This document shows positions 55,391 to 59,770 of a DNA stretch of 64,000 nucleotides, in pieces (position 1 is the first letter of the stretch; each line of letters starts with the position of its first letter). The stretch covers positions 1-64,000 of the forward strand of contig NZ_JALIQS010000007.1 of NCBI RefSeq assembly GCF_024704725.1, given 5' to 3'. This DNA is from Shinella sp. CPCC 101442 (GTDB lineage: Bacteria; Pseudomonadota; Alphaproteobacteria; Rhizobiales; Rhizobiaceae). The position numbers and the translations under genes are program-made. The notes under the pieces were generated by a model. That model was not told the origin of the DNA and made no database searches. It saw only the letters and a list, made by a program, of their open reading frames with translations.

Positions 55391-56800
55391 TCAGCACCCA
55401 AGCCAGCGGGCGCAGTCTTCAAGCGCGCGGGCGGCGGTGGCCTGCTTCTTTGCGACCGCCTTGTCCTTGCCGCGAAAACGCTTCAACCCTTCGGGTCTGA
55501 CGACGGCGCCTGCTTCCAGCGGCGGGAAAAGGCCGAAATTGACGTTCATCGGCTGGAAGGAGCGTTTGCCCGGCTCCTCGTCGGAGACGATGTGGCCGCC
55601 GGTAATGTGGTTCAAGAGCGCGCCGAAGGCCGTCGTTTCCGGCGGCAGCACCGGCGTCTCGCCGCGGCGCTCGGCGGCGGCGAAGCGCCCGGCAAGCAGG
55701 CCGATGCTGGCGCTCTCGACATAACCTTCGCAGCCGGTGATCTGTCCGGCGAATCGGAGGCCCGGACGGCCCTTCAGCGCCAATGAACGGTCGAGCAGCG
55801 TCGGCGAATTGATGTAGGTGTTGCGGTGCAGGCCGCCGAGACGGGCGAATTCCGCATTTTCGAGGCCGGGAATCAGCCGGAAGATTTCCGCCTGCGCGCC
55901 GTATTTCAGCTTCGTCTGAAAGCCGACCATGTTGTAGAGCGTGCCGAGCGCATTGTCCTGGCGCAATTGCACGACGGCATAGGCCTTGACGCCAGGGTTA
56001 TGCGCATTGGTCAGGCCCATCGGCTTCATGGGGCCGTGGCGCGGCGTCTCTCGACCACGCTCGGCCATCACTTCGATCGGCAGGCAGCCGTCGAAATAGG
56101 GCGTGCCTTCCCACTCCTTGAAGCCCGTCGTGTCACCGGCGATCAGTGCGTCGATAAAGGTGTTGTACTGCGCCTCGTCCATCGGGCAGTTGATGTAGTC
56201 CTTGCCCGTGCCGCCGGGGCCGACCTTGTCGTAACGCGACTGGAACCAGCAGATATCCATGTCGATGCTGGCGGTATGGACGATGGGGGCGATTGCGTCG
56301 AAGAAGGCGAGCGAATCGGCGCCGGTGCGTTCCTGGATGGCGGCAGCGAGCGACGGCGCGGTGAGGGGGCCGGTGGCGATGATCGCCTGGTCCCACTCTT
56401 CCGGCGGCAGGCCAGTCACCTCCTCACGCGTGATCGTGATCAGCGGGTGGTTTTCCAGAGCTGCGGTGACGGCGGCAGAAAAACCGTCGCGGTCGACGGC
56501 GAGCGCGCCGCCGGCCGGCACCTGGTTGGCATCGGCCGAGCGCATGATGAGCGAGCCGGCAAGCCGCATTTCGGCATGCAGAACGCCGACAGCATTCGAC
56601 GTCGCATCGTCCGAGCGGAAGGAGTTCGAGCATACGAGCTCGGCAAGGCTGTCCGTCTTGTGCGCATCCGTGCCGCGCACGCCGCGCATTTCATGCAGGA
56701 TGACGGGAACGCCGGTTTCGGCGATCTGCCAGGCGGCTTCAGAGCCGGCAAGGCCGCCGCCGATGACATGGATTGGATTTTGCGAAGAGGTCTGGGTCAT
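55391..56800 (-). CDS. trmFO: Methylenetetrahydrofolate-tRNA-(uracil-5-)-methyltransferase TrmFO
   Basis: The 469-aa flavoprotein begins with a Rossmann FAD motif ([19 protein letters not shown]). It shows family markers [21 protein letters not shown] (with the conserved catalytic-region Cys), [31 protein letters not shown] and [23 protein letters not shown]. It forms m5U54 in tRNA using methylene-THF and FAD. ATG 56800 is the start; upstream residues in the same frame are not conserved. Earlier literature names it gid. Confidence 0.96.
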
Positions 56801-56877
56801 GGGCGGTTCGTTACCATGGGCAACGGCGCTTTTCCAAGGAAAAGCATGGGGGCGGGGCGTCATGCCCCCGGAATCAA

Positions 56878-56905
56878 AAACGGCACCAGATGGTGCCGTT
56901 TGATC
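56878..56905 (-). terminator. Terminator of the first DUF1127 gene
   Basis: On the minus strand AAACGGCACCA-TC-TGGTGCCGTTT is followed by TTGATT. It lies about 50 bp after the DUF1127 stop codon. Confidence 0.75.
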
Positions 56906-56955: not shown

Positions 56956-57099
56956 TTAGCGGAAGGAACGGGCTGCGATATCACGGATGTCGTAACGGGT
57001 CAGGCCGATGTCGGACAGCGTGTGGTTCGACAGGTTGCCGAGTTCGTTCATCGTGCGGCGGTAGGACATCCAGTTCTTTGCGATGCGGATCGGGTTCAT
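56956..57099 (-). CDS. DUF1127 mini-protein (47 aa), copy 1
   Basis: The minus strand encodes [20 protein letters not shown] followed by [20 protein letters not shown], ending IAARSFR. This is the DUF1127 (YjiS-like) pattern: W..YRRT..EL..L....L.DIG..R.DI. GAGGAGAAG lies upstream of ATG 57099. In Agrobacterium, Brucella and Rhodobacter such proteins are small Arg-rich, possibly RNA-binding factors affecting phosphate, carbon use and RNA turnover. It has its own terminator, and a TATGCAT motif is about 105 bp upstream. Confidence 0.9.
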
Positions 57100-57203
57100 G
57101 ATCTTCTCCTCGAAGTGTTGGCCGGGAGGTCTGTCTCACCGGTTTGTGACGCCTATATACGCGACACCCTTGTTAATGTGCAGTGCAAAGAAAATGCAGC
57201 TGC

Positions 57204-57218
57204 TATGCATTTGTGCAA
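57204..57218. promoter_or_regulatory. TATGCAT-type motif, copy 1
   Basis: TATGCATTTGTGCAA, about 105 bp upstream of the first DUF1127 start. Similar motifs are found at 57712 and 58431. The half-palindromic ATGCAT/TGCA layout and far-upstream position fit a LysR-type regulator. Confidence 0.45.
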
Positions 57219-57382
57219 TAAGACGATGAAGGATCGTGCAGATGCTCTTGTTGTATGCGCAATAGGCAAAAAGTGGCGCAATTCCAAGCAGGTAGACTAA
57301 AAGAGTGATGTTTCCGGCGGGCGGCGATGACGTCGCAGCGGAAGGATTGCGACATTGTGCGCCGCAAAAAGATGCGCAAATG

Positions 57383-57416
57383 AAAACGCCCCCCGGTGGG
57401 AGCCGGAGGGCGTTCA
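57383..57416 (-). terminator. Terminator of the second DUF1127 gene, with CUCCC loop
   Basis: On the minus strand AACGCCCTCCGG-CTCCCA-CCGGGGGGCGTT is followed by TTCATTTG. The loop shows CTCCC, a short form of the CUCCUCC loops of the sRNAs nearby. Confidence 0.8.
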
Positions 57417-57443
57417 AATTGCGACCCGAAGGGTCCGTTCGGC

Positions 57444-57587
57444 TTAGATCGAAGCCTTGCGAGCGATGTACGGGATATCGCTGCGGCCGATGCCGAGGTC
57501 GCGGAGCTCGCGGTCCGTCATACGGCCGAGTTCGCTGACGGTCTGACGATACTTGCGCCAGTTGTTGAAAGAGCGTGCCAGGTTCAT
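57444..57587 (-). CDS. DUF1127 mini-protein (47 aa), copy 2
   Basis: The protein MNLARSFNNWRKYRQTVSEL followed by GRMTDRELRDLGIGRSDIPY and IARKASI is a clear DUF1127 member. It shares W.KYR.T..EL..M....L.D.GI.R.DI with copy 1 but differs at most other positions, so the copies are old paralogues. ATG 57587 is used because the domain begins there. A terminator follows at 57383-57416. The next transcription units upstream on the same strand are the two CUCCUCC-loop sRNAs. Confidence 0.9.
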   Translation of the reverse strand: MNLARSFNNWRKYRQTVSELGRMTDRELRDLGIGRSDIPYIARKASI

Positions 57588-57711
57588 GTCATTTACCCCT
57601 TTCGTGGGCTTGCGTACTGGGCGGCCGCTCGTCTTTGGCGCCGCCCTGATCTGATGGATTGAAATATACGCTGCGCCGCGAAAAAAGACAGCGCTATTGC
57701 TGTATGGCACC

Positions 57712-57728
57712 TATGCATATTTCGCATG
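57712..57728. promoter_or_regulatory. TATGCAT-type motif, copy 2
   Basis: TATGCATATTTCGCATG, about 125 bp upstream of the second DUF1127 start, similar to copies 1 and 3. Confidence 0.45.
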
Positions 57729-57819
57729 TCAAGCGGAAATTTAGGCGAAATTTCGACCAAATACCGGATGTGGCGCCACAATGGTAAATGAGTTATGCGG
57801 GATTGATTGGTTGCAGCGC

Positions 57820-57945
57820 AAAAAGAAACGCCCGCCGGGGGAGGAGATCCGGCGGGCGTTTCTGATCTCGATTGGCAGCTTGGGAGGAGGAGGGCTGCCA
57901 ATCATGTCGGGGGACGTTGGGAGGAGGAGATCGTCGCCCGACCGA
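57820..57945 (-). ncRNA. CUCCUCC-loop sRNA (cuckoo/alpha-r14-like), copy 1
   Basis: Read on the minus strand this ~125-nt unit folds into three hairpins. The first (57913-57940) has a GGGCGACG stem and loop ATCTCCTCCTCCCAA. The second (57870-57903) has GATTGGCAGC / GCTGCCAATC with loop CCTCCTCCTCCCAA. The third (57829-57860) has CGCCCGCCGG / CCGGCGGGCG with loop ATCTCCTCCC, followed by TTTCTTTTT as terminator. Loops that expose an anti-Shine-Dalgarno CCUCCUCCC are the hallmark of the cuckoo RNA family (alpha-r14 in Sinorhizobium, CcsR in Rhodobacter), which also lie near DUF1127 genes. The 5' end is estimated from the first stem. Confidence 0.85.
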
Positions 57946-58118
57946 TGAAAGAGATGTAACCTGCCCATGCAGCGAGCAAAAGCGCGCGCTCGGAATGGCA
58001 CCCATGCGCGAGATGCATGCGTTTGCAGGGCACGCGAAATGTCGCGCGGAGCCTGGGCTGCGTGGCGACGGTCTCGGAATTTTGCTGATGGGCGATTGGT
58101 TCGCCACGCGGGTCGGCG

Positions 58119-58243
58119 AAAACAATAACGCCCGCCGGGGGAGGAGGTCCGGCGGGCGTCATTAAGAGTGATTGGCAACTGGGAGGAGGAGTGTTGCCAA
58201 TCGTATCGGAGGAGCGCTGGGAGGAGGAGTGCGCTGCTCCGAA
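58119..58243 (-). ncRNA. CUCCUCC-loop sRNA (cuckoo/alpha-r14-like), copy 2
   Basis: The second copy is 173 bp upstream of copy 1's 3'-side processing unit, on the same strand, with the same three-hairpin plan. The first stem is CGGAG..GCGC / GCGCTCCTCCG with loop CTCCTCCTCCC; the second is GATTGGCAAC / GTTGCCAATC with loop ACTCCTCCTCCCA; the terminator is ACGCCCGCCGG / CCGGCGGGCGT with loop CCTCCTCCC and tail TATTGTTTT. Stems 2 and 3 are nearly identical to those of copy 1, while stem 1 and the spacer differ, indicating duplication with selection on loops and stems. A ~170-bp spacer separates the copies and could carry a separate promoter. Confidence 0.85.
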
Positions 58244-58430
58244 TTCCTGTGCGATACCGTTTCCGGCGATCGGGTCTGTCGGCATCATGCCGGGCGTTCG
58301 ACCATTCCGCCCTCCGGTCTGCCTGTCGCCTCAGCGGCGCCTTGGTTTCCGGTTCGAACCATCTCTGATCCGATGACTGCAATGTAACCCGATCCCTCGA
58401 TTTTGTGCAGTGCAATATGGGAATGGATGA

Positions 58431-58447
58431 TATGCATCCGCTGCATG
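58431..58447. promoter_or_regulatory. TATGCAT-type motif, copy 3
   Basis: TATGCATCCGCTGCATG lies about 190 bp upstream of the second sRNA. A TGTGCAGTGCAA identical to that upstream of DUF1127 copy 1 is at 58404-58415. A partial hairpin arm AACGCCCACCGGGGC at 58459-58473 may be a relic of a third sRNA terminator. Confidence 0.4.
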
Positions 58448-58666
58448 CCCAAAATCGAAACGCCCACCGGGGCTTTGTTGCTAAATCTATCGGGTATTTC
58501 TTTGATTTTCGTTAACCGTCGTGCTGTTTGCAGCCGTTCTGCCGAGAATAGCCATTCGCTTCGTGGATTTCGCTTCGATTGCGAATTTCTGGGTGCGCTA
58601 TACCGTCTCTGTTGACAGGATTCGAAACGGTCGAGTCGGGCGCATTTTCCGAGGGAGCGATGGCGG

Positions 58667-59770
58667 ATGTATAGAGGCAGGCTGGAGCGCGATCTCAAAT
58701 TGTGGACGCAGCAGGGCTTGCTCGACATGCCCACGGCCGATCGCCTCCTGAAAGAGTTCGATTCCCGTGAAAGCTCCTTCAGCCTCGGCCGCGTGCTGAT
58801 GATGATTGCCGCGCTGCTGATGTCGGCTGCCGTGCTGTTGCTGGTTGCCGCCAACTGGGAGGCGATACCGCGCCTCGTGCGCGTCATCGGCATCGTCGCG
58901 CTGATCTGGGGGGCCTATCTGGCGGGTGGCCTGCTCATCCAGCGTGGGGCGCCGCGGCTTGCCGCAGCCTTCCTTGCGACGGGTACGCTCGCTTTCGGTG
59001 GCGCCATTGCCCTTGTCGGACAGATGTATCACCTCTCGGGCGATGCGCTTCAGGCGATGCTCGTCTGGTTCGGCGGCGCGGTGATTGCGGCCGCGCTCTT
59101 CCGCTCCGGCGCGGTGACCGCCATCGCCGGCTTCCTTGCGTTCGCCGTTGCCTGGACGGACTGGAGTGAAGCCTACAATGCTAACGAGACGCTGCTTTTG
59201 TGGCTGATGCCGCTCATGGCCGTCATCATCATTCTGCTGGTACGCTACACGGATGCCGGGCGTGTCCGCCATCTCGCCTATCTGCTGCTCGTCGCCTCGC
59301 TCGCTTTCATCTATGGCGAACACGAGACCCCGACGACCGCCATAACCATCGCCGGGCTTGGTGCGGTCGCCTATCTCCTGGCCAGCGTGCCGCAATCGCC
59401 CCTCCATGCGCTGGCCCGCAGCGCGGGCGCCGCGCCCGCCTTCTATTCCTATCTCGTATTGCTGCTCGGCCTTTTCGTGCTGCATGCCGAGTTCGACAGC
59501 GTGGGGGATCGGCTGTTTCTCGGCATCATCACGCTCGTCGCAGCCATCGGCGGCATTGTGCTGTCCGGCAAGAACAATGGCGCGGTGCGCTACCTCGGCT
59601 ACGCGACCTTCGCGGCCGAAACGCTCTATCTCGCCTCCGAGACCATCGGATCGATCATCGGCACCTCGGGTTTCTTCCTGATTTCGGGGCTGGTCGTCGC
59701 TCTCGTCGCCTGGGGCGTGATCGTCGTCGAGCGGCGTTTTTCCAAGGCTGAAACGAAGGCGGAGGCCTGA
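58667..59770 (+). CDS. DUF2157 family membrane protein
   Basis: The 367-aa protein has a soluble N-terminus (RGRLERDLKLWTQQGLLDMPTADRLLKEFD) and then about ten membrane helices starting with VLMMIAALLMSAAVLLLVAANWEAIPRLVRV, which is the DUF2157 signature (ANWE.IPR..R). Function unknown. GGAGCGATGGCGG precedes ATG 58667. It is coupled with the following GDYxxLxY gene, a pairing seen widely. Confidence 0.9.
   Translation: MYRGRLERDLKLWTQQGLLDMPTADRLLKEFDSRESSFSLGRVLMMIAALLMSAAVLLLVAANWEAIPRLVRVIGIVALIWGAYLAGGLLIQRGAPRLAAAFLATGTLAFGGAIALVGQMYHLSGDALQAMLVWFGGAVIAAALFRSGAVTAIAGFLAFAVAWTDWSEAYNANETLLLWLMPLMAVIIILLVRYTDAGRVRHLAYLLLVASLAFIYGEHETPTTAITIAGLGAVAYLLASVPQSPLHALARSAGAAPAFYSYLVLLLGLFVLHAEFDSVGDRLFLGIITLVAAIGGIVLSGKNNGAVRYLGYATFAAETLYLASETIGSIIGTSGFFLISGLVVALVAWGVIVVERRFSKAETKAEA

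What the first reader, a model, noticed from the sequence alone, without database searches (positions are those of the whole stretch)
56956..58473. DUF1127 pair next to tandem CUCCUCC-loop sRNAs (cuckoo/alpha-r14 family)
Two DUF1127 mini-genes and two sRNA genes lie on one strand within 1.3 kb. Each sRNA has three hairpins, and all six loops expose CUCCUCC, a perfect anti-Shine-Dalgarno. The terminator of DUF1127 copy 2 also has CTCCC in its loop, so its mRNA could have been the source from which the sRNAs arose, or it could compete for the same targets. Family-level precedent (alpha-r14, CcsR) exists from memory; the arrangement of 2 proteins + 2 sRNAs + loop-bearing mRNA end has, to my knowledge, not been described as a unit.
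Basis: partly seen in the sequence, partly recalled or inferred. Interest (0 to 1): 0.8.

Follow-up and report, generated by a model that had tools for sequence, protein, structure and literature searches.

The report
Paired anti-Shine-Dalgarno sRNAs beside DUF1127 genes
Two known-type regulatory RNAs and two tiny DUF1127 protein genes sit together in a Shinella-like soil bacterium, and their matching promoters suggest that one regulator switches on all four and that the RNAs descend from the tail ends of DUF1127 messages.

Summary
Both sRNAs are members of Rfam family ar14 (123.6 and 106.2 bits; cut-off 58.8), all six loops expose CUCCUCC, 25 of 28 stem pairs show compensatory changes in 36 relatives, and both small genes are DUF1127. 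The genome is most likely a Shinella. The association is already known (the 'CIN1' locus), and the order sRNA-sRNA-DUF-DUF recurs in Shinella and Sinorhizobium, so the claim that the unit is undescribed is weak. The CTCCC loop of the copy-2 terminator is not conserved, which removes the 'competitor/source' idea.

Two points seem new. (1) All four units carry an LsrB/VtlR-type box (TGCA-N5/6-GCAT) at a near-fixed distance from a -10 across the genus, so this looks like a co-regulated set, not an operon. (2) At the same trmFO-linked locus, many other Rhizobiales carry promoter-DUF1127-ar14. Here the upstream sRNA keeps that promoter and the AATTCGG junction, but a 127-nt leader replaces the ORF. 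The sRNAs thus probably descend from DUF1127 3'UTRs. Predictions: sRNA1 is cut from a ~250-nt precursor, sRNA2 is a primary transcript. Function (aSD silencing; DUF1127 as maturation partner) is inferred from S. meliloti NfeR1 and Rhodobacter CcsR/CcaF1.

The parts
58123..58247 (-). sRNA1, ar14/cuckoo sRNA body with three CUCCUCC loops
   Evidence: RF02344 123.6 bits; fold; covariation
58248..58374 (-). sRNA1 5' leader (predicted TSS 58374), in place of the DUF1127 ORF found at related loci
   Evidence: present in window and 18 of 20 Shinella loci, missing in L048 and L051; related leaders by alignment in Sinorhizobium L171/L165 and in L096; no DUF1127 coding trace; structural support weak
58423..58445 (-). 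LsrB/VtlR-type box of sRNA1 (TGCA-N6-GCAT)
58405..58415 (-). TTGCACTGCAC element at the -35 position of the sRNA1 promoter, shared with DUF1127 copy 1 and with DUF1127-ar14 operons elsewhere
58382..58387 (-). weak -10-like hexamer TTACAT of sRNA1, 58 nt from the box start (in the window the best-scoring hexamer, TACATT, is at 59)
57823..57946 (-). sRNA2, ar14/cuckoo sRNA body (predicted TSS 57946)
   Evidence: RF02344 106.2 bits; fold
57995..58017 (-). LsrB/VtlR-type box of sRNA2 (TGC-N7-GCAT-N3-TG-N3-T)
57954..57959 (-). weak -10-like hexamer TTACAT of sRNA2 at offset 58 (in most relatives CTATAT stands here; in the window the best-scoring hexamer lies at 67)
57444..57587 (-). DUF1127 gene A (copy 2), 47 aa, Shine-Dalgarno AAAGGGG
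   Evidence: PF06568 61.5 bits; start and RBS
57704..57726 (-). LsrB/VtlR-type box of DUF1127 gene A
   Evidence: best PWM hit in the window, 24.2 bits
57663..57668 (-). -10 hexamer TATATT of DUF1127 gene A (predicted TSS 57655)
57385..57414 (-). terminator of DUF1127 gene A, loop CUCCCA (loop not conserved)
56956..57099 (-). DUF1127 gene B (copy 1), 47 aa, Shine-Dalgarno GAGGAG complementary to the sRNA loops
   Evidence: PF06568 55.6 bits; RBS duplex -11.3 kcal/mol
57205..57217 (-). variant box TGCA-N5-GCAT of DUF1127 gene B
   Evidence: once in the window and in each of 20 Shinella loci; -10 mostly at offset 58
57178..57188 (-). TTGCACTGCAC element of DUF1127 gene B
57154..57159 (-). -10 hexamer TATATA of DUF1127 gene B
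56880..56899 (-). terminator hairpin of DUF1127 gene B
   Evidence: read from sequence
55391..56863 (-). trmFO, conserved downstream neighbour used to recognise the orthologous locus (longest ORF; its first codons are uncertain; the name is recalled, not from a family search)

Best explanation
The segment is the Shinella form of the trmFO-linked 'CIN1'-type locus: two ar14 (cuckoo, NfeR1-type) trans-acting sRNAs followed by two short DUF1127 genes, all on one strand, each unit with its own promoter and terminator. A shared operator of the LsrB/VtlR type sits at near-fixed distance from each -10, so one LysR-type regulator probably turns on all four together. The sRNAs work by exposing three CUCCUCC loops that block Shine-Dalgarno sequences of many mRNAs, as reported for S. 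meliloti NfeR1. The locus evolved from an operon in which ar14 was the 3'UTR of a DUF1127 message, as in Rhodobacter ccaF1-CcsR. In the lineage of Shinella and Sinorhizobium the ORF was lost, so sRNA1 keeps the old promoter and the AATTCGG junction with a noncoding leader and is probably cut from a ~250-nt precursor, while sRNA2 starts directly at its promoter. Shown here: family membership, structure, shared promoter geometry, conserved locus, distribution of the DUF1127-ar14 form. Inferred: LsrB binding, transcription, processing, targets, and action of DUF1127 proteins on the sRNAs.
For: Family and structure. Locus conserved: sRNA1 in 20 of 20 other Shinella loci, second ar14 in 16 of 20 (15 by exact motif; L051=G005 by Rfam score), DUF-A and DUF-B each by HMM in 19 of 20, and the gene start by pattern in the one locus missing from each. 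Operator: a matrix from 29 boxes of other genera puts its seven best window hits at 57248-58453, all inside this locus; the best elsewhere scores 11.1 bits against 24.2, 17.4, 17.3, 14.9 and 13.9 for the distinct minus-strand sites. The combined box TGC-N7-GCAT-N3-TG-N3-T occurs twice in the window, at DUF-A and sRNA2, expected 0.12; 1 of 100 shuffles has two. In the genome it has 20 matches against 3 for the reversed control; 6 of them, at 5 sites, lie upstream of three DUF1127 genes, sRNA2 and the first ar15 (AbcR1 by position) next to a LysR gene beside trxB. Box start to conserved initiator is 70-71 nt in 21 of 21 sRNA1, 15 of 16 sRNA2 and 20 of 20 DUF-A promoters found; such an initiator stands there at 87 of 6300 random anchors. 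NfeR1 has its LsrB box at -72 to -60 (passage in PMC10746234). Best -10 at offset 58-59: sRNA1 21 of 21, sRNA2 12 of 16, DUF-A 20 of 20, DUF-B 18 of 21, against 1406 of 6300 random anchors. Ancestry: among 35 trmFO- or DUF2157-linked loci with ar14, the first ar14 follows a DUF1127 stop within 70 nt in 18, any ar14 in 20. On a trmFO tree the label needs 4 changes (shuffles mean 14.0, 0 of 500 as low), and one clade of 17 rows (11 of them Shinella, SH-aLRT 97) is ORF-less throughout. L098 at the same locus has promoter, intact DUF1127, AATTCGG, ar14.
Against: No transcript data. No binding data for LsrB in Shinella. In the window itself the -10 hexamers of both sRNAs are poor (TTACAT), and the best-scoring one for sRNA2 lies at offset 67, so the window is among the 4 of 16 misses; a generic sigma70 scan found no promoter. 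The -10 search looked only at offsets 50-67 with ties broken towards 58. The leader has no DUF1127 coding trace and only 6 of 19 predicted pairs covary, so ORF loss is inferred from position, promoter and junction only. The tree is a quick one with long branches at the root; 4 of its 41 labels were set by hand and only 10 of the 20 other Shinella loci were used. L088, L104 and L109 have ORF-less first units outside the main clade, so loss was not a single event. sRNA1 and DUF-B boxes depart from the published GCAT-N3-TG-N3-T. One paper reports that LsrB does not control the AbcR sRNAs in S. meliloti (PMC7486931), another that it does (PMC8844928). Fourteen genomic matches of the box elsewhere were not examined.
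Confidence: 0.72

Rival explanations
1. Bystander model: the sRNAs and the DUF1127 genes are co-regulated neighbours without a functional link. The proteins act on other proteins (as reported for A. tumefaciens short DUF1127 proteins and PhoR), the sRNAs act on ABC-transporter mRNAs.
For: Separate promoters and terminators; PhoR interaction, complementation by several DUF1127 proteins including CcaF1, and no evidence of RNA binding for Salmonella YjiS (passages in PMC12501420).
Against: The association is retained across many Rhizobiales loci and in several Rhodobacterales records; CcaF1 binds RNA and takes part in maturation of CcsR RNAs in Rhodobacter (passages in PMC10253847).
Confidence: 0.4
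2. One reading: the DUF1127 copy-2 terminator loop competes with, or gave rise to, the sRNAs.
For: Loop CUCCCA in the window; a weak 21.6-bit ar14 match to 57381-57457, far below the cut-off of 58.8.
Against: CTCCTCC in 0 of 20 orthologous terminators and CTCCC in the loop of 6, while the stems stay paired by eye.
Confidence: 0.05
3. Polycistronic precursor: one long transcript from the sRNA1 promoter is cut into sRNAs and DUF1127 mRNAs, as in Rhodobacter.
For: Same strand and order within 1.3 kb; operon form with RNase E processing in Rhodobacter (PMC10253847).
Against: The sRNAs and DUF-A end in strong hairpins and each of the four units begins with its own box and -10-like hexamer.
Confidence: 0.08
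4. The sRNA1 leader is a functional element of its own (separate sRNA, target site or regulator of processing) rather than a relic of a lost ORF.
For: Sequence kept in the window and 18 Shinella loci, with relatives in Sinorhizobium; the Sinorhizobium leader L171 folds better than chance (z -2.7, 1 of 200 shuffles as good).
Against: Lost in L048 and L051 while promoter and ar14 body remain; weak covariation; the window leader folds with z only -1.4.
Confidence: 0.3

Closest known systems
ar14 / cuckoo sRNA family (Rfam RF02344), S. meliloti NfeR1
   Same: Three hairpins, CCUCCUCCC-type loops, multi-copy, LsrB-type box at about -71 with a sigma70-type promoter (NfeR1 features from passages in PMC10746234 and PMC7143759)
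   Different: sRNA1 carries a 127-nt leader between predicted start and hairpins; which Sinorhizobium copy is NfeR1 was not determined
CIN1 locus; Rhodobacter sphaeroides ccaF1-CcsR1-4 operon
   Same: Short DUF1127 gene(s) beside ar14-like sRNAs (PMC10253847 passage)
   Different: In Rhodobacter the sRNAs follow the ORF in one RpoH-driven transcript; here the sRNAs come first and each unit appears to have its own promoter; the Rfam CcsR1 model matches only below its cut-off (35.3 and 22 against 65.3 bits); CcsR RNAs are reported to interact with Hfq (PMC8307010 passage), NfeR1 not
VtlR/LsrB-activated DUF1127 genes (A. tumefaciens atu1667, ortholog of Brucella small-protein genes; Brucella, three DUF1127 genes) and AbcR sRNAs
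   Same: Box GCAT-N3-TG-N3-T upstream of DUF1127-type and sRNA genes (passages in PMC7486931, PMC12595884, PMC8844928). That atu1667 is a DUF1127 gene is inferred from its Brucella orthologs
   Different: Here sRNAs and DUF1127 genes with the box lie in one locus; two of the four boxes fit the consensus only partly

Membership tests
ar14 / cuckoo sRNA (RF02344) | Covariance-model score above the curated cut-off | tested here: met
   123.6 and 106.2 bits against 58.8
ar14 / cuckoo sRNA (RF02344) | Three hairpins with aSD motif unpaired in each loop | tested here: met
   folds; pattern (sRNA1)
ar14 / cuckoo sRNA (RF02344) | Stems supported by covariation | tested here: met
   25 of 28 pairs, 36 sequences, 0 of 500 shuffles
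ar14 / cuckoo sRNA (RF02344) | Transcribed, trans-acting on SD sequences | not testable with these tools
   no expression data; only a duplex estimate for DUF-A/B ribosome-binding sites
DUF1127 (PF06568) | Pfam score above gathering score | tested here: met
   55.6 and 61.5 bits against 23.3
CIN1 locus (DUF1127 with CcsR-like sRNA) | Short DUF1127 gene associated with ar14/CcsR-like sRNA | tested here: met
   conserved. Definition taken from one sentence of PMC10253847; the original (Reinkensmeier and Giegerich 2015) could not be read
ccaF1-CcsR operon | sRNAs downstream of the DUF1127 ORF in one transcript | tested here: not met
   order is sRNA, sRNA, DUF, DUF with a box and -10-like hexamer before each unit; transcripts themselves not tested
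LsrB/VtlR regulon | Box TGCA-N6-GCAT / GCAT-N3-TG-N3-T at the right distance from the start | tested here: met
   sRNA2 fits both; DUF-A fits TGC-N7-GCAT and GCAT-N3-TG-N3-T; sRNA1 fits the first only; DUF-B has a variant with N5
LsrB/VtlR regulon | Regulator binds and activates | not testable with these tools
   a LysR-type gene beside trxB and two ar15 sRNAs exists in the genome

The most novel reading that the evidence does not exclude
The locus is a ribonucleoprotein module switched on as a set by LsrB: the two short DUF1127 proteins are the missing, Hfq-independent partner of NfeR1-type sRNAs, and sRNA1 is a 3'UTR sRNA whose protein-coding parent was erased while promoter and cleavage site survived, that is, a traceable birth of a free-standing sRNA gene from an mRNA tail.
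Probability: 0.2. Interest if true: 0.7.

Novelty: new variant of a known kind. Interest (0 to 1): 0.45.

Why it matters
NfeR1 is reported to be Hfq-independent and its chaperone, if any, is an open question (passage in PMC10746234); [quoted passage not shown] A locus that places both under one kind of operator, with a series of relatives from DUF1127-3'UTR sRNA to stand-alone sRNA, makes both questions testable in a laboratory rhizobium and gives a possible worked case of how an sRNA gene separates from its parent mRNA.

Tried and rejected
Terminator-loop source/competitor idea: rejected, loop not conserved. Decayed DUF1127 ORF inside the leader: searched in three frames with an HMM at full sensitivity; best hit 1.6 bits, so not shown. 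Leader as a strongly structured RNA: 6 of 19 predicted pairs covary, covariation term 0. Generic sigma70 scan: 0 promoters found. LsrB consensus GCAT-N3-TG-N3-T alone is not specific (10 hits, 7.4 expected); TGCA-N6-GCAT alone gives 8 hits against 2.6 expected, 4 of them in this locus; only the combined box stands out, and 14 of its 20 genomic matches lie elsewhere and were not examined. TTGCACTGCAC alone: 4 genomic matches, 2 of them here; the other two (C1:602950, C8:55451) are at no DUF1127 or ar14 place listed. NfeR1 promoter signature CTTAGAC-N17-CTATAT: a loose scan (spacer 15-19) of all loci then held (window left out) found none, so the NfeR1 copy was not identified. Duplex estimate: DUF-B ribosome-binding site -11.3, DUF-A -7.5; 5 and 16 of 54 roughly called window ORFs score as low, so autoregulation of DUF-B is possible but not special. 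In the first tally my regex found DUF-B in only 12 loci; others (HMM hits, 20 of 20 with the box; 21 loci) replace it. My ORF length filter missed DUF-B in L047 and DUF-A in L060; one search shows their starts. L108 and L115 were scanned but dropped from the table because no ar14 reached the cut-off. Papers wanted but not held: PMC4615179, PMC8034643, PMC3346310.
Full report
What was checked. The finding claims two DUF1127 mini-genes and two sRNAs with CUCCUCC loops on the minus strand of 56956-58473. Rfam's ar14 model matches 58123-58247 and 57823-57946 at 123.6 and 106.2 bits, well over the cut-off of 58.8. Single-sequence folds put CUCCUCC unpaired in all six loops, with z-scores of -9.7 and -8.4. 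In an alignment of 36 ar14 bodies of the same family code (f1), chosen by me to span copies and genera out of the loci held, 25 of 28 pairs change on both sides and stay paired; no shuffle of 500 reaches this, and slid structures pair in 33-52% of cells against 94%. Pfam confirms both 47-aa proteins as DUF1127.

Where it is. Contig G018:C11 of the same genus has the length (777,776 bases) of a Shinella yambaruensis contig found by pattern (L160), so the window's genus is most likely Shinella. The genome holds three ar14 genes over the cut-off and seven DUF1127 genes. All three ar14 genes have a DUF1127 gene within about 550 nt: the two here, and C2:948311 downstream of the DUF1127 gene at C2:948690.

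The unit is conserved. In the orthologous segments of 20 other Shinella genomes, sRNA1 is present in 20, a second ar14 in 16 (15 by exact loop motif; L051 = G005 by Rfam score), and DUF-A and DUF-B are each found by HMM in 19; the one missing from each list (L060, L047) was lost to my length filter and its start is there by pattern. trmFO lies downstream and the DUF2157 gene upstream in 20 of 20. Sinorhizobium sp. 6-70 (L171) has the same order ar14, ar14, DUF, DUF, trmFO; S. psoraleae (L165) shows ar14, ar14, DUF up to the end of the fetched stretch. The second Shinella locus has DUF1127 about 200 nt upstream of ar14 in 17 of 20 loci fetched (own genome and 19 others), by HMM.

Promoters. Upstream of each unit lies a box of the type known from NfeR1 (TGCA-N6-GCAT, PMC10746234, passages) and from VtlR/LsrB targets (GCAT-N3-TG-N3-T, PMC8844928 and PMC7486931, passages). 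A weight matrix made from 29 boxes upstream of ar14 genes in other genera places its seven best hits in the 64-kb window within 57248-58453; the best hit elsewhere has 11.1 bits, against 24.2 (DUF-A), 17.4 and 14.9 (sRNA1), 17.3 (sRNA2) and 13.9 (57248-57270, upstream of the DUF-B box). The combined box TGC-N7-GCAT-N3-TG-N3-T has two matches in the window, at DUF-A and sRNA2, with 0.12 expected and 1 of 100 shuffles as high. In the whole genome it has 20 matches against 3 for the reversed pattern; 6 of them, at five sites, sit upstream of three DUF1127 genes, sRNA2 and the first ar15 (AbcR1 by position). The other 14 were not examined. AbcR1 is a reported LsrB target in S. meliloti (PMC8844928; disputed by PMC7486931) and serves as a control of a sort; its LysR-type neighbour next to trxB is the candidate LsrB of this genome.

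Geometry. The distance from the first base of the box to the conserved ATC-type initiator is 70-71 nt in 21 of 21 sRNA1, 15 of 16 sRNA2 and 20 of 20 DUF-A promoters found in the genus (window included); an initiator stands at that distance from 87 of 6300 random anchors. This fits the -72 to -60 position of the LsrB box at the NfeR1 start. The best -10 within offsets 50-67 (ties towards 58) lies at 58-59 in 21 of 21, 12 of 16, 20 of 20 and, for DUF-B with a TGCA-N5-GCAT box, 18 of 21, against 1406 of 6300 random anchors. Against this: in the window itself both sRNA promoters have a poor TTACAT at 58, and the best hexamer of sRNA2 is at 67; a generic sigma70 scan found nothing. On balance the four genes read as four separately started transcripts under one switch. 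Binding by LsrB is inferred.

Origin. sRNA1 differs from sRNA2: between its predicted start (58374) and its hairpins lies a 127-nt leader, conserved in the window and 18 of 20 Shinella loci, missing in L048 and L051, with related leaders in Sinorhizobium and in L096. At the same trmFO-linked place many other Rhizobiales carry promoter, DUF1127 ORF, a short junction and ar14. By rule (DUF1127 stop at most 70 nt upstream) this holds for the first ar14 in 18 of 35 loci and for any ar14 in 20 of 35 (two further scanned loci had no ar14 over the cut-off). L098 shows it with the same TTGCACTGCACAAA promoter element and the same AATTCGG junction as Shinella sRNA1. On a quick trmFO tree of 43 rows (41 labelled, 4 by hand, 10 of 20 other Shinella loci used) the label needs at least 4 changes, against 14 in shuffles, and one clade of 17 rows (11 Shinella) with SH-aLRT 97 is ORF-less throughout; L088, L104 and L109 are ORF-less outside it. 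Several Rhodobacterales records of the pattern scan (for example Paracoccus L149, Thalassovita L190, Yoonia L196, Aliiroseovarius L132) also show DUF1127 followed closely by ar14, though Yoonia litorea L182 shows no DUF1127 there. The simplest reading is that ar14 began as the 3'UTR of DUF1127 mRNA and that the ORF was lost from the first unit in the ancestor of this clade and in a few other lines. Against this: the leader holds no DUF1127 coding trace and only weak structure, and long branches near the root weaken the direction.

Mechanism. For the sRNAs, silencing through three redundant aSD motifs is reported for NfeR1 (PMC7143759 and PMC10746234, passages) and is transferred here by family membership. 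For the proteins, CcaF1 of Rhodobacter binds RNA and promotes RNase E maturation of CcsR (PMC10253847, passages), while another paper of the same field says that increased CcaF1 interferes with that maturation and that CcsR RNAs interact with Hfq (PMC8307010, passages). Short DUF1127 proteins of A. tumefaciens act on PhoR (PMC12501420, passages). I cannot decide between these. DUF-B has a GAGGAG Shine-Dalgarno that pairs with the loops (-11.3 kcal/mol), DUF-A has AAAGGGG (-7.5); 5 and 16 of 54 rough window ORFs score as low. Another S. meliloti DUF1127 gene is controlled by a leader with a small upstream ORF and attenuation (PMC12218461, abstract and sections 6 and 12); it is called a large DUF1127 gene there and I found no sign that it concerns this locus.

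Known or new. The sRNA family, the DUF1127 association (CIN1), LsrB control of NfeR1 and VtlR control of DUF1127 genes are published. I found no paper in the held library that joins them: searches for DUF1127 with sRNA (18 papers), cuckoo/CcsR/NfeR1/ar14, CIN1/cuckoo, LsrB with DUF1127, CcaF1/CcsR1/CIN1 (25 of 2,399 listed), VtlR in Agrobacterium (10 of 11 listed) and NfeR1 with DUF1127/trmFO/Shinella. I read passages or sections of eleven papers, not whole texts. The library lacks three key papers, so this absence is not strong. I rate it a new variant of a known kind.

Noticed in passing
own genome C2:744332-744439(-), L273: A further DUF1127 gene with the LsrB-type box upstream is followed by a single hairpin with loop ATCCTCCTCCCAGAT-type sequence and a terminator: possibly a one-hairpin relic or precursor of an ar14 RNA (ar14 match 19.7 bits; sequence; box).
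   Followed up: partly
window 58456-58480: A short inverted repeat with changing stem letters lies just upstream of the sRNA1 box in many of the Shinella loci, between two divergent genes (seen by eye).
   Followed up: no
window 57100-57140(-): The 5'UTR of DUF1127 gene B holds an ACCTCCC stretch, kept in most Shinella loci and flanked by CCGG, upstream of its GAGGAG-type Shine-Dalgarno; it could fold on it (seen by eye).
   Followed up: no
L047 between the two ar14 genes: About 0.9 kb extra lies between sRNA1 and sRNA2; the reading frame there looks like a transposase by eye.
   Followed up: no
L105 and L112: In two other genera of the same family code three to four ar14 copies follow a DUF1127 gene in tight tandem, much like the Rhodobacter CcsR array.
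   Followed up: no
window 58667-59770(+): A DUF2157 membrane-protein gene is the conserved divergent neighbour of sRNA1 in 20 of 20 Shinella loci.
   Followed up: no
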